Positions 14,557 through 32,811 of a stretch of 64,000 nucleotides of DNA are shown one piece after another. The DNA comes from Elusimicrobium minutum Pei191. Lineage in GTDB: Bacteria; Elusimicrobiota; Elusimicrobia; Elusimicrobiales; Elusimicrobiaceae. The notes under the pieces are model-generated. The model worked only from the letters and a program-made list of their open reading frames with translations. It did no database searches and had not been told where the DNA came from. The stretch is taken from assembly GCF_000020145.1 (NCBI RefSeq), contig NC_010644.1:1-64000 (forward strand). The letters run 5' to 3'. How positions within the stretch are numbered: the stretch's first letter is position 1; each line of letters begins with the position of its first letter. The translations under genes were made by a program, and so were the position numbers.

Positions 14557-14715
14557 ATGCAAAAATACGTATGCAATGTTTGTGGTTATATTTATGATCC
14601 TGCCGCGGGCGATCCGGACAGCGGGATTACCGCCGGCACACCTTGGGAGCAAGTTCCTGCGGATTGGGTTTGCCCGGCTTGCGGAGTAGGTAAAGACCAG
14701 TTTTCACCTATGTAA
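14557..14715 (+). CDS. rub: Rubredoxin
   Basis: This 52-residue electron carrier is missed by length-limited gene finders. Two Cys-x2-Cys-G knuckles, [12 protein letters not shown] and [10 protein letters not shown], bind one iron. The aromatic residues and the [14 protein letters not shown] loop are typical. ATG 14557 is preceded by GGGGAGAG. It closes the oxidative-stress cluster and is followed at once by a strong terminator. Confidence 0.97.
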
Positions 14716-14716
14716 T

Positions 14717-14748
14717 AAAAAAGGCCGCTTTTTAAAGCGGCCTTTTTT
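14717..14748 (+). terminator. Terminator after rubredoxin
   Basis: AAAAAAGGCCGCTTT and AAAGCGGCCTTTTTT form a near-continuous palindrome ending in six T residues. Confidence 0.92.
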
Positions 14749-14752
14749 ATTA

Positions 14753-14890
14753 GAGTACGCAACACCCCCTGCGTAAGCCGGGGAATGGATAGTTTTCTAA
14801 TTTCACAACACCTCCGCGGCAGCAAGGCGGAGGTGTTGTTTATTGTTAAATGAAACTGCAAAGTAAAGCTTTAGAACAGAAGAAACCCCG
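14753..14890. repeat. Dispersed repeat, copy 1
   Basis: About 138 bp match a second copy at 30029-30170 in the same orientation. I count 9 differences in the first 65 columns. It contains a perfect 13-bp stem (14805-14817 with 14827-14839) with loop GGCAGCAAG. The second half (TGTTTATT through the run before AACCCCGG) is less conserved. Both copies begin just after the T-run of a rightward terminator and lie downstream of a leftward gene (here the pilin). The nature is unknown: MITE-like element, small RNA or mini-gene. Confidence 0.8.
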
Positions 14891-14922
14891 GGCGGTGGGA
14901 CATTTGTGTTTTATTAAAAAAC

Positions 14923-15504
14923 TTAATTTATTGAGATGCAGGTAAAATTGTACCCGGACGTGGCTATCGTAGCCGGACAGGGTATCTCTTTGCCGAATGT
15001 TTTGCAAACGGCTATTGCGCTTTGGTCGGTTCCATAAGCAGTGCATACCAAAGCCTCTTCATCCGGCATCCAGCGGACAGCAAGCGGCGTGCCGTCTTTA
15101 GCAGCGTTCATTATTCCGCCCATAACATAAAAACCGTTGCCGGCTTTTAATCCCTTTTCTCCCCGTAACTGTAAGGAAAGATTATTGCCTACCTTTTTAG
15201 TTTGGGAACCGGTTTGGGCGTTGGCCGGGCCGCCGGAGACATCTATGTCTAAGGATTCAAAGTCAATAGTATATTCCCCGTTAGCCAGGAAATGCCGCCT
15301 TTGCGCGTCAGCTACGGCTTTTACTAAAACCAAGGCTTCTGCAAGTCGGCTTTTTTGCACTGCTTTTTGGTATTGAGGCACGGCGATTGCGGCAAGTATT
15401 CCTATAATAAGAACCACAACCAGCAGCTCGATAAGGGTAAAAGCTTTATTTTTCGTATGTAAAAAGCACACAATGAAGCAATATATAGGGTATTTTTGTT
15501 TCAT
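14923..15504 (-). CDS. Type IV pilin / pseudopilin (PilE/PilA-like)
   Basis: This is the structural subunit of a type IV pilus or pseudopilus. The prepilin cleavage site lies at A21-F22 in NKAFTLIELLVVVLIIGILA, with the essential glutamate at +5 (E26) and a 20-residue hydrophobic helix, followed by AVPQYQKAVQKSR. The position before the cut is Ala rather than the usual Gly. The leader of 21 residues is long and unusually hydrophobic (PIYCFIVCFL). A late cysteine pair (VCKTFGKEIPC) may form the D-region disulfide. Length is 193 residues. No other pilus gene is adjacent, so assembly machinery must be elsewhere. Confidence 0.93.
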   Translation of the reverse strand: MKQKYPIYCFIVCFLHTKNKAFTLIELLVVVLIIGILAAIAVPQYQKAVQKSRLAEALVLVKAVADAQRRHFLANGEYTIDFESLDIDVSGGPANAQTGSQTKKVGNNLSLQLRGEKGLKAGNGFYVMGGIMNAAKDGTPLAVRWMPDEEALVCTAYGTDQSAIAVCKTFGKEIPCPATIATSGYNFTCISIN

Positions 15505-29666: not shown

Positions 29667-29700
29667 GCGGCGGACGTCCTAAATGGGACCTTTTTGGGAC

Positions 29701-29728
29701 TTGCTTATAAGCTTTAACGCGTTATACT
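29701..29728 (+). promoter_or_regulatory. Promoter of the candidate structured RNA
   Basis: TTGCTT (29701-29706) and TATACT (29723-29728) are separated by 16 bp, predicting a start near 29735, just before the first helix. Confidence 0.55.
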
Positions 29729-29734
29729 TTAATC

Positions 29735-30024
29735 ATGGAGGCAAACGAAAAAGAGGAAAATATTCTCTTTATCACGAGCCGTTTGGCTTGAGCCTCCTAA
29801 GTTTTAGGCCTGAAGGCGGTAAGTTTACCGCTCAAAGGCGGCGGTTAGAGGGACTATAATAAAATGGGTTTATAGTACCTTGGCGGTTTGGAATAAGAAA
29901 AGCGTGTAGAGGGCACGCATTAAAGATTCGGGGAGCGGAGAAGCAGTTACTTCTCCGCTCTCTTCATTTGGGTCTGTTTGAAAATTTTGCGGGAAAAACC
30001 CCTCTGAAAAGAAGGGCTTTTTTT
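29735..30024 (+). ncRNA. Candidate structured non-coding RNA, family not recognised
   Basis: This gene-free stretch contains a chain of hairpins. One is a nested stem (GGAGGC 29737-29742 with GCCTCC 29792-29797, AAACG with CGTTT, AAAGAG 29750-29755 with CTCTTT 29765-29770). The others are CCTAA/TTAGG 29796-29808, GCGGTAA/TTACCGC 29816-29831, ACTATAA/TTATAGT 29853-29876, GCGTG/CACGC 29902-29918, and an 11-bp stem 29933-29943 with 29950-29960. A promoter precedes it and a T-run (30018-30024) ends it, after a weak stem. I checked by eye for tmRNA, RNase P, SRP and 6S signatures and found none. An 18-codon ORF starts at ATG 29735 without a ribosome site. Confidence 0.55.
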
Positions 30025-30028
30025 GTGA

Positions 30029-30170
30029 GAGAGCGCAGCACCCCCTGCGTAAACCGGGGGATGGATAGTATCCTGATTTCACAACACCCCCGCCTTGCTG
30101 CTGCGGAGACGTGGCTGTTTATTATTGGGTAAAACCGCAATGTGAAGTTTTGAAACAAAAAACACCCCGG
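30029..30170. repeat. Dispersed repeat, copy 2
   Basis: This is the second copy of the element at 14753-14890. Its hairpin left arm (30081-30093) matches copy 1, but the 9-nt loop here is CTTGCTGCT, nearly the reverse complement of the copy-1 loop. The right arm (from 30103) is degraded. It begins five bases after the T-run of the RNA candidate and runs into the alaS terminator. Confidence 0.8.
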
Positions 30171-30190
30171 ACTAACGCCCGGGGTGTTTT
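30159..30190 (-). terminator. Terminator of alaS
   Basis: A 12-bp stem AAAACACCCCGG with CCGGGGTGTTTT (loop 8 nt) lies just past the alaS stop. On the minus strand it is followed by a T-rich tract. Confidence 0.88.
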
Positions 30191-30204
30191 ATAGACGGGT
30201 TCTA

Positions 30205-32811
30205 TTAAAGCAATTCTTTTATTGTTTTTAAAAACTCATTCCAATCCGTTACTTTACAGCCGCCTTGGGCAAAATCAGCCTTGCCGCCGGCACTGCCTTC
30301 CATTTTGCCCGCCAAACCTTTGGCGAGCGTGCAGGCGTCGGTGTTGCTGCCCTCGGCCTTTTTTACCACAAATGAACGCCTGTCCCCGTTATCTACGGCT
30401 ATAACGATTACTGCGTCTTTATGTTTTTGGCTTAAGCTGTCGGCCAGCGTTCTTAATTCTTTGGGGTTGGCGCCCTCTGCTTTCATGGAAATAATTTTCT
30501 TCCCGTTTAAAACGTCTTCTTTTACCTGGGTTCCGCCGGATCCCCCGGTTAAAAGTTTTTGCCTTAAAGAGGCTATTTCTTTTTTAGCGGCTTTTAAATC
30601 TTCCAGTACGGAATTGACTCTGGCGGGCACTTCTTTTAAAGAAGTTTCAAGCGTTTTTGCCATGGCGCTTAAAGCATGCGTATTTTCTTTTAAATAGTCT
30701 ATCGCTGCGATGCCGGCAACGCCTTCTATACGCCTTACCCCGGCGGAAAGGGCGCCTTCTTTAATAAGTATTACAGTAATAATTTCCGAGGTATTGTTAA
30801 CGTGTGTTCCGCCGCAAAGCTCTAAACTGTATTTTAAGGAAGGCTCGTTAAAGTTAGCTCCTACCATAACAAATCTGGCAGGGTCGGCATATTGTTCGCC
30901 CACAAGGGTAACCGCACCTAATTTTTTAGCGTCCTCTAATGGGCGTATTTCACAGTTAACGGGATGCGCGCGTATAACGGCGTTGTTTGCCATTTCAAAC
31001 ACTCTGGCAAGCTGTTCAGAGGTAGGCGCGTGCGGTGCAGTGTAGTCAAACCTGAAAACATCGGCCGATACAAAAGAACCCGCCTGATGCACGCTTTCGC
31101 CTATTACCTGGCGCAGCGCCTCATTAATTAAGTGCACGGCAGTATGGTTAGCAGCTGTTTTTTTGCGGTTAACCGGGTCAATTTTTACTTCAATTTCAGA
31201 GCCTTCTTTTAAAACGCCCGAAACTTCAACAGCGTGCAAAATGATGTTTGATAAAGGTTTTTCCGCGGTTGAAACCAGGGCTTGCCCGTCTTTCCAGGAA
31301 AAGGCCCCTCTGTCTCCCATCTGTCCGCCGCCCGTGGCGTAAAAAGGCGTTTTATCAAGCACGGCGTAGCCCGGGCCGGAAAGTTCTTTTACCTGCTCAA
31401 ATTTATCATTTAAAACAATAAGGACTTTTGATTTGGTTTGTATTTGTTCGTACCCTACAAAAGTGTTTTTAAGACTGTTTTCTATTTTTTGTAAAACAAC
31501 AAGCTTTTCTTTGCTAAACTCATCCGCGTAGGAACGACTTTTTTCGCGTGCCTCTTTTTTTGCTTTTTCAAAAGATTCTTCATCTAAAGCAAGTCCTTTT
31601 GCCAAGGCTATTTCTTTAGTTAATTCAACGGGAAAACCGAAGGTTTCGTACAGATAAAAAGCGTTTTCGCCGCTTATAGTTTTTTTGCTTTTTTTAATAA
31701 TGTCCTCAAGTCTTTCTTCACCGTTTTCAAGTGTTTTAAAAAAGGCCTCTTCTTCCGTTTTTATAACTGAGGAAATATAGTTTTTATTATTTCTGATTTC
31801 AGGGTAAATTTCGCCAAAATGCAAATCAATTACGCTTACAAGCAGGTGTAAAAAAGGGCCTTTAACGCCGGCTAATTTGCCGTATCTTAAAGCGCGGCGT
31901 ATTAAGCGGCGTAAAATATACCCGCGGCCTTCGTTAGAAGGTAAAATACCTTCCGATATTAAAAAGACTGAGCTTCTTATATGATCTGACACTATTCTTA
32001 AAGTGGATATTTCCTCTTTTATTTTCCCTTCAATTTTCAATAATTTTTTTGCTTCGTTAATTGTAGGGGTAAAAAGGTCCGTTTCAAAAGGGCTTTGTAC
32101 ATTTTGCATGGCCATTACAAGGCGTTCAAGCCCCATGCCGGTATCAATGTTTTTTTGCGAAAGGGGCACTATGGAACCGTCGTCTTTTCTGTCAAATTGG
32201 GTAAAAACAATGTTCCAAATCTCAACAAACCGGCCGCAGTCGCACTCGATGTTGCAGTTTTTGTTTTTGCAGCCTTTATCGCCAAAATCATAATAAATTT
32301 CAGAACACGGGCCGCAGGGACCCGTGGGGCCCATTGTCCAAAAATTATCCTTTTCGCCCAGTTCAAAAATTTTTTCTTTAGGAAGGTGTTTAAGCCAGAA
32401 ATTATATGCTTCGTTATCGCGCTCGGCAATGCCGCCTTTATAAATGCTTACATAAAGTTTTTCCGCCGGTATTTGCAGCGTTTGTGTTAAATATTCCCAA
32501 GCCCAGTTTATGGCTTGTTCTTTAAAATAATCACCGAAAGAAAAATTGCCCAGCATTTCAAAAAACGTAAGATGGCGGTTTGTAAAACCAACGCTGTCAA
32601 TATCTGTTGTGCGCACGCATTTTTGGCAGGTAACGGCACGGTGAAGGCTTTTATCCAAGCCTAAAAAATTAGCTTTAAACTGAACCATTCCGGCTGAGGT
32701 AAAAAGTAAAGTCGGGTCCGCCTGGGGAATAAGGGAGCTTGAAGCTACAACCGTACAACCTTTTGACTTAAAAAAATTTAAAAATGAAGCGCGTATTTCT
32801 TTGCTGTCCAT
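30205..32811 (-). CDS. alaS: Alanyl-tRNA synthetase
   Basis: The enzyme charges tRNA-Ala and edits mischarged serine or glycine. The class II core occupies the N-terminus (EIRASFLNFFKSKGC, TLLFTSAGMVQFK, FEMLGNFSFGDYFKEQAI). The editing domain has the zinc-binding H-x3-H in ANHTAVHLINEALRQ and the partner C-x3-H in ELCGGTHV. The C-Ala domain follows at the end. At 868 residues it is full length. An AGAGGA site precedes ATG 32811, and TGCTATACT upstream on the minus strand is a likely extended -10 promoter shared by the divergent region. Confidence 0.98.
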   Translation of the reverse strand: MDSKEIRASFLNFFKSKGCTVVASSSLIPQADPTLLFTSAGMVQFKANFLGLDKSLHRAVTCQKCVRTTDIDSVGFTNRHLTFFEMLGNFSFGDYFKEQAINWAWEYLTQTLQIPAEKLYVSIYKGGIAERDNEAYNFWLKHLPKEKIFELGEKDNFWTMGPTGPCGPCSEIYYDFGDKGCKNKNCNIECDCGRFVEIWNIVFTQFDRKDDGSIVPLSQKNIDTGMGLERLVMAMQNVQSPFETDLFTPTINEAKKLLKIEGKIKEEISTLRIVSDHIRSSVFLISEGILPSNEGRGYILRRLIRRALRYGKLAGVKGPFLHLLVSVIDLHFGEIYPEIRNNKNYISSVIKTEEEAFFKTLENGEERLEDIIKKSKKTISGENAFYLYETFGFPVELTKEIALAKGLALDEESFEKAKKEAREKSRSYADEFSKEKLVVLQKIENSLKNTFVGYEQIQTKSKVLIVLNDKFEQVKELSGPGYAVLDKTPFYATGGGQMGDRGAFSWKDGQALVSTAEKPLSNIILHAVEVSGVLKEGSEIEVKIDPVNRKKTAANHTAVHLINEALRQVIGESVHQAGSFVSADVFRFDYTAPHAPTSEQLARVFEMANNAVIRAHPVNCEIRPLEDAKKLGAVTLVGEQYADPARFVMVGANFNEPSLKYSLELCGGTHVNNTSEIITVILIKEGALSAGVRRIEGVAGIAAIDYLKENTHALSAMAKTLETSLKEVPARVNSVLEDLKAAKKEIASLRQKLLTGGSGGTQVKEDVLNGKKIISMKAEGANPKELRTLADSLSQKHKDAVIVIAVDNGDRRSFVVKKAEGSNTDACTLAKGLAGKMEGSAGGKADFAQGGCKVTDWNEFLKTIKELL

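What the first reader, a model, noticed from the sequence alone, without database searches (positions are those of the whole stretch)
14753..14890. Repeat copies differ by an inverted hairpin loop
Two copies of a roughly 140-bp element (14753-14890, 30029-30170) share flanks and the left hairpin arm, but the 9-nt loop is GGCAGCAAG in one and CTTGCTGCT, nearly its reverse complement, in the other. Flip of a loop between inverted arms suggests cruciform-mediated or recombinase-driven inversion. Both copies sit right after a rightward T-run and downstream of a leftward gene.
Basis: seen in the sequence. Interest (0 to 1): 0.62.

Follow-up and report, generated by a model that had tools for sequence, protein, structure and literature searches.

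The report
Terminator-seeking mini-transposon with flipping hairpin loop
The two repeats are copies of a small, gene-less jumping element related to the IS200 transposon that lands just behind transcription stop signals, and the loop of its central hairpin has indeed been flipped around in about a quarter of the copies, most likely by ordinary hairpin copying errors rather than by a dedicated switch.

Summary
The two copies (14751-14914, 30027-30192) belong to a genome-wide family: 39 places read, 31 near full length. The central hairpin loop is CTTGCTGCT-like in 24 of 31 and its reverse complement AGCAGCAAG-like in 7 of 31, window copy 1 among them. On a tree built without the hairpin the 7 are scattered; a single origin is not formally rejected.

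The element is best read as a non-autonomous IS200-group (HUH/Y1) transposon, a PATE: subterminal hairpins at both ends, left junction TTTTTTAT|, right end GTTT(C/T)AT. The same right end directly follows IS200 transposase genes in relatives, and one such IS lies beside its own natural empty site. It sits behind intrinsic terminators: 23 of 31 copies by a strict test, against 49 of 4000 random positions. No IS200 transposase was found in the window's own genome, so the copies are probably fossils.

Loop inversion is most likely a hairpin replication error (template switch or cruciform flip), as printed for rRNA and plastid hairpins. I found no sign of a recombinase; reads were not available.

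The parts
14719..14748 (+). intrinsic terminator of the rubredoxin gene (14557-14715), target of copy 1
   Evidence: GC stem AAAGGCCGCTT/AAGCGGCCTTT then T-run; rubredoxin by Pfam PF00301
14746..14750 (+). TTTAT left-flanking target (C_L-like) of copy 1; not part of the element
   Evidence: left junction consensus TTTTTTAT| over 31 copies and empty site of a related IS200
14751..14914 (+). copy 1 of the IS200-group non-autonomous element, flipped (minority) loop orientation
14765..14783 (+). left-end hairpin CCCCCTGC-GTAA-GCCGGGG of copy 1
   Evidence: similar hairpin in autonomous IS200 left ends
14799..14857 (+). outer stem AATTTCAC (14799-14806) with ATGAAACT (14850-14857) enclosing the central hairpin
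   Evidence: helix 2, 89% of cells paired
14806..14838 (+). central hairpin, arms 14806-14817 and 14827-14838
   Evidence: helix 3, 93% of cells paired
14818..14826 (+). 9-nt loop GGCAGCAAG (the inverted loop)
14886..14904 (+). right-end hairpin of copy 1, decayed (no longer pairs well)
14909..14914 (+). TTTTAT right terminus (C_R-like) of copy 1
29995..30024 (+). terminator hairpin and T-run in front of copy 2
30027..30192 (+). copy 2 of the element, majority loop orientation
30041..30060 (+). left-end hairpin CCCCCTGC-GTAA-ACCGGGGG of copy 2
30075..30136 (+). outer stem GATTTCAC (30075-30082) with GTAAAACC (30129-30136)
30082..30114 (+). central hairpin of copy 2 (right arm worn)
30094..30102 (+). 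9-nt loop CTTGCTGCT (majority orientation)
30163..30186 (+). right-end hairpin CACCCCGG...CCGGGGTG; on the minus strand, with its T-run, it also looks like a terminator of the alanyl-tRNA synthetase gene (30205-32811)
30187..30192 (+). TTTTAT right terminus (C_R-like) of copy 2

Best explanation
The repeats are copies of a roughly 165-bp non-autonomous transposon of the IS200 group (a palindrome-associated transposable element, PATE), moved in the past as single-stranded DNA by an IS200-type HUH/Y1 TnpA acting in trans. TnpA would recognise the left- and right-end hairpins and join the element 3' of a T-tract-plus-AT target, which in these genomes lies mainly behind intrinsic terminators; hence the position after a rightward terminator, in the lagging-template orientation, mostly between convergent genes. 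Shown: the family, its ends, their sharing with IS200 transposase genes in relatives, the terminator position, the two loop orientations. Inferred: movement by TnpA in trans, and present immobility. Separately, the loop between the arms of the central hairpin has been inverted in some copies, most likely by a replication template switch or cruciform-type flip at the hairpin, and more than once (inferred).
For: Copy family: 39 places read, 31 near full length. Ends: the 3' end AAAGAAACCCCGGGCGTGAGCCCGGGGAGTTTCATT follows the stop of a 143-aa IS200 transposase in G055 (L102; Pfam Y1_Tnp E 2.8e-28; NCBIfam transpos_IS200 111.5 bits, cut-off 55), with a matching left-end hairpin upstream. In the named genome collection the exact right-end pattern gave 33 stretches: 21 titled Elusimicrobiota names, 10 'uncultured bacterium' (one assembly), 2 Candidatus Uhrbacteria, and these two again follow an IS200-type transposase tail (four of the 33 were read). 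Empty site: L102's IS lies in the second of two tandem pgk-tail-plus-terminator copies, the first being unoccupied (GGGTCTAT|TTTATACC v GGGTTTAT|IS ending GTTTCAT|TTTATCC): insertion 3' of TTTAT, no target duplication. Junction consensus in the own genome TTTTTTAT|GAGAGT ... GTTT(C/T)AT|. Terminator directly upstream by the strict test: own 23 of 31, degenerate own 6 of 6, relatives' small elements 15 of 19, autonomous IS200 13 of 15, random positions 49 of 4000. Lagging-template orientation in 26 of 31 (Fisher p 4.5e-4; dnaA at 556-1914). Relatives keep the order left hairpin, nested hairpin, AAGCGAAGCT hairpin, right hairpin. Loop: 24 v 7 of 31; 7 changes on the tree, at least 2 forced by well-supported branches; right-end hairpin loops are also inverted in some relatives (TTAC/TTTAC/TCAC in L086, L092, L100, L114 against 22 of the GNRA type, among 53 candidate hairpins). 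Printed precedents for loop inversion: rRNA loops, bacteria included (PMC8794818, abstract and passages); plastid hairpins flipping several times on a tree (PMC6824564, passages).
Against: No IS200 TnpA in the own genome: the one Y1_Tnp gene is REP-type and flanked by its own, different hairpins, so mobility in trans is inferred from relatives. No clean empty site for an own-genome copy: the alaS neighbourhood of the same-genus genome is rearranged. Strand bias is confounded, because the upstream reading frame is rightward in 29 of 31 copies. The AU test does not reject a single origin of the flipped loop (p 0.176), and gene conversion between copies could imitate recurrent flips. The terminator control used random, mostly coding positions; among intergenic sites of the window, TTTTAT already follows a terminator in 11 of 38 and TTTTTTAT in 10 of 16.
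Confidence: 0.85

Rival explanations
1. The repeats are a structured non-coding RNA family (several hairpins with GNRA-type loops) rather than, or besides, a transposon; the structure is kept for RNA function.
For: Four hairpins kept across genera; right- and left-end loops mostly GTAA/GTGA; wobble G-T exceeds A-C in the stems, 90 v 56, p 0.006, so the top strand is the one under constraint.
Against: No Rfam family above its gathering score at the element; both ends are shared with transposase-bearing IS200 elements; G-T over A-C is also expected if the top strand folds as single-stranded DNA; 12 pairs with changes on both sides against 9.6 in shuffles, not exceptional.
Confidence: 0.12
2. The loop is switched by a site-specific recombinase (an inverton-like phase switch).
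For: Two orientations between inverted arms.
Against: Arms of about 12 bp and a 9-nt loop; no recombinase among the neighbouring genes annotated; arms decayed in many copies; loops of right-end hairpins are inverted too in relatives, as a general hairpin error predicts.
Confidence: 0.04
3. The two loop orientations are two old subfamilies: one inversion only, later spread by movement or gene conversion.
For: AU test does not reject one clade (p 0.176); the tree is nearly star-like.
Against: The best tree with the flipped copies held together is 19 log units worse; 7 changes against a shuffled mean of 6.5, at least 2 forced by starred branches.
Confidence: 0.25
4. The element belongs to the genome's REP-associated transposase (RAYT) and is a REPIN.
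For: One REP-type Y1 transposase gene is present.
Against: That gene is flanked by GGGACA...TGTCCC hairpins, and no convincing match to the element was seen near it in the part of the listing printed; the element's ends match IS200-type elements instead.
Confidence: 0.04

Closest known systems
PATEs of Haloquadratum walsbyi (PMC3119063, passages read)
   Same: Short, no transposase gene, near-terminal palindromes related to IS605-type transposons, no inverted terminal repeats, no target duplication
   Different: Here bacterial (Elusimicrobiota), IS200-group ends, a conserved nested central hairpin, and placement behind intrinsic terminators
IS200/IS605-family IS (IS200 group, TnpA only)
   Same: Same right end and a similar left-end hairpin beside a Y1 transposase in relatives
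   Different: No transposase gene; the interior is a hairpin-rich stretch
Loop inversion by template-switch mutation in rRNA hairpins (PMC8794818, abstract and passages) and small inversions of plastid hairpins (PMC6824564, passages)
   Same: Loop reversed in place between arms, repeatedly
   Different: Here inside copies of a mobile repeat family in one genome, which gives many parallel trials
RAYT-REP systems (PMC6006769, passages; REPINs recalled)
   Same: Hairpin repeats in many copies tied to a Y1 transposase
   Different: Different transposase class and no GTAG-type foot seen
Group IIC introns (recalled, no call)
   Same: Also insert behind intrinsic terminators
   Different: Retroelement with ribozyme; nothing of the kind was seen here

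Membership tests
IS200/IS605-derived PATE | near-terminal hairpins at both ends | tested here: met
   worn in single copies, e.g. the right end of window copy 1
IS200/IS605-derived PATE | ends shared with a TnpA-bearing IS200/IS605 element | tested here: met
   L102, L132 and others; found in relatives, not in the own genome
IS200/IS605-derived PATE | no terminal inverted repeats and no target duplication | tested here: met
   empty site of the related IS in G055, junctions; not shown on an own-genome copy
IS200/IS605-derived PATE | insertion 3' of a fixed short target | tested here: met
   TTTTTTAT| consensus in 31 copies
IS200/IS605-derived PATE | lagging-strand template bias | tested here: inconclusive
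   26 of 31, confounded with gene orientation
IS200/IS605-derived PATE | movement by TnpA in trans | not testable with these tools
   needs an assay
Omega-RNA (TnpB-associated RNA) | TnpB-type protein in the genome | tested here: not met
   no match to PF07282 in the own genome; IscB not searched
REPIN of the resident RAYT | same hairpin flanks the RAYT gene | tested here: not met
Recombinase-switched inverton | both orientations at one locus in one population | not testable with these tools
   no reads available
Known Rfam RNA family | covariance model match at gathering score | tested here: not met

The most novel reading that the evidence does not exclude
In Elusimicrobiota a lineage of IS200-group transposons and their gene-less derivatives has made intrinsic terminators its safe harbour, recognising the terminator (hairpin plus T-tract on the lagging template) rather than only a short sequence, and donating in return a terminator to the convergent gene; the hairpins of these elements flip their loops repeatedly because the element lives as folded single-stranded DNA, so the copy family is a natural recorder of hairpin inversion.
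Probability: 0.3. Interest if true: 0.6.

Novelty: new member of a known kind. Interest (0 to 1): 0.4.

Why it matters
It turns an isolated oddity into a family with an explanation: about 30 copies in one small genome give many parallel observations of loop inversion, a mutation type usually seen one case at a time. It also shows an IS200 lineage placed behind terminators, which would explain how such elements persist without breaking genes and how they may supply terminators to their neighbours. My searches for this placement in print listed no paper that I recognised as describing it; they cover open-licence PubMed Central text only, and most listed papers were judged by title and abstract start.

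Tried and rejected
Structured RNA as the main identity: Rfam gave nothing at threshold at the element and RNAalifold alone predicted only the central hairpin. RAYT/REPIN origin: the resident Y1 gene has its own hairpins. TnpB/omega-RNA: PF07282 absent. Empty site at alaS in the same-genus genome: neighbourhood rearranged, no answer. Literature on Elusimicrobium minutum repeats: nothing relevant in the listing. Link between loop orientation and replication strand: 7 of 7 flipped copies lie in the lagging-template orientation, but so do 19 of 24 others, so no conclusion. Loop flips in the central hairpin of other genera: none noticed by eye. Rows kept: of 105 rows at E<=1 I read 39; of 44 non-own rows I read the 28 that had loci and tested 19 of those for terminators (9 dropped because the left end was missing or unlike); of the Y1 loci 18 were read and 15 tested (REP-type and contig-cut ones left out). 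The 53 right-end hairpins include a second IS200 type and some chance hairpins.

Full report
What is there. Searching the window's own genome (1,643,562 bases, one contig; the size agrees with Elusimicrobium minutum Pei191 from recall, the organism was not confirmed) with copy 1 gave many relatives at 69-79% identity over most of the element. A covariance model of 24 aligned copies found 105 rows at E<=1, of which I read 39: 31 near full length and 8 degenerate or partial.

Anatomy. In the orientation of the window copies: terminator of the upstream gene; TTTTTTAT; element start GAGAGTACGG; left hairpin CCCCCTGC-GTAA-GCCGGGGG; GGATAG; nested structure GATTTCAC [CAACACCTCCGC-loop-GCGGAGGTGTTG] CTGTTTGTTGTTGA GTGAAATC; small hairpin CAAAGCGAAGCTTTG; AAACAAAAGAAA; right hairpin CCCCGGGC-GTGA-GCCCGGGG; end AGTTT(C/T)AT. 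86% of the pair cells form standard pairs, against 35-50% when partners are slid. G-T exceeds A-C in the stems, 90 v 56: the top strand is the constrained one.

What it is. Searching the family of genomes with the model gave matches in 22 of 90 genomes, 4 of 6 genera, own genome included. The relatives keep the same order of hairpins with other sequences in the middle. A DNA search showed the conserved right end in further genomes, and in L102 (G055) it directly follows an open reading frame that is an IS200 transposase. Upstream of that gene lies the matching left-end hairpin, again right behind a terminator. A same-family search for Y1_Tnp found matches in 23 of 90 genomes; among 18 loci read, several carry this type of ends and others a second IS200 type, also behind terminators. 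In G039, small elements (L080, L098) carry the ends of that genome's IS200 (L132) with the gene missing. L102 also offers a natural empty site, because the pgk tail and terminator are tandemly duplicated and only the second copy is occupied. A scan of the named genome collection gave 33 exact matches to the right-end pattern: 21 with Elusimicrobiota titles, 10 'uncultured bacterium', 2 Candidatus Uhrbacteria, where it again follows an IS200-type transposase tail.

Where it sits. Strict terminator test: 23 of 31 own copies, 6 of 6 degenerate own copies, 15 of 19 small elements of relatives, 13 of 15 autonomous elements, against 49 of 4000 random window positions; a looser test gave 28 of 31 against 358 of 4000. 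In the window, 11 of 38 intergenic TTTTAT sites and 10 of 16 intergenic TTTTTTAT sites follow a terminator, so a long T-tract target plus loss of insertions in genes could explain most of the pattern without recognition of the hairpin. Neighbouring reading frames are convergent in 22 of 31. 26 of 31 copies lie in the lagging-template orientation (dnaA, dnaN, gyrB at the start), which IS608 and ISDra2 prefer (PMC6006769, passages), but gene orientation confounds this; a printed set of IS605 elements shows no such preference (10 of 22 on the leading strand, PMC7290912, passages).

The loop. 24 of 31 copies have the CTTGCTGCT orientation and 7 of 31 the reverse complement. Window copy 1 has the minority state. 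On a tree of 138 columns without the hairpin the 7 need 7 changes (shuffled mean 6.5), well-supported branches force at least 2, and the AU test of one clade gives p 0.176. Recurrent inversion is thus favoured, not proven. Right-end hairpins of relatives show inverted loops in four loci. Template-switch loop inversion has been reported for rRNA genes, with 69 loop-only cases, loops of seven to eight bases among them (PMC8794818, passages), and hairpin-bounded small inversions flip several times on plastid trees (PMC6824564, passages). That is the mechanism I favour.

Limits. No reads, no expression data, no transposition assay. The own genome has no IS200 TnpA at the search used, so the copies look like fossils of an earlier wave; their divergence fits that. 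The only same-genus neighbourhood examined was rearranged.

Noticed in passing
L032 5459-6241 with flanks (own genome 650,458-651,240): A REP-type Y1 transposase gene (REP_Tyr_transpos 71 bits, under its cut-off of 80) flanked by inverted GGGACA...TGTCCC hairpins, the left one again right behind a terminator T-run.
   Followed up: partly
window 14923-15504 (-): Convergent neighbour of copy 1 is a pilin-like protein with an N-methylation motif and a weak match, under its cut-off, to ComP_DUS, the DNA-uptake pilin family.
   Followed up: no
window 29680-29990: Hairpin-rich intergenic stretch between an HD-domain gene and copy 2; looks like a non-coding RNA gene, no Rfam match worth naming.
   Followed up: partly
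L102 790-1036 (G055): The pgk tail with its terminator is tandemly duplicated in front of the IS200; several sister genomes show similar pgk-tail repeats.
   Followed up: no
L065, L066, L067 (own genome 708,672; 195,056; 939,676): Degenerate copies keep a well-paired right-end hairpin after the centre is lost, as if retained as a terminator of the convergent gene; the set was chosen by the search model, so it is biased.
   Followed up: partly
L121-L131, L134 (relatives): A second IS200 type with different hairpins (GTGAAAACCCCC.../...GGGGGATATTTATT) also sits behind terminators.
   Followed up: partly
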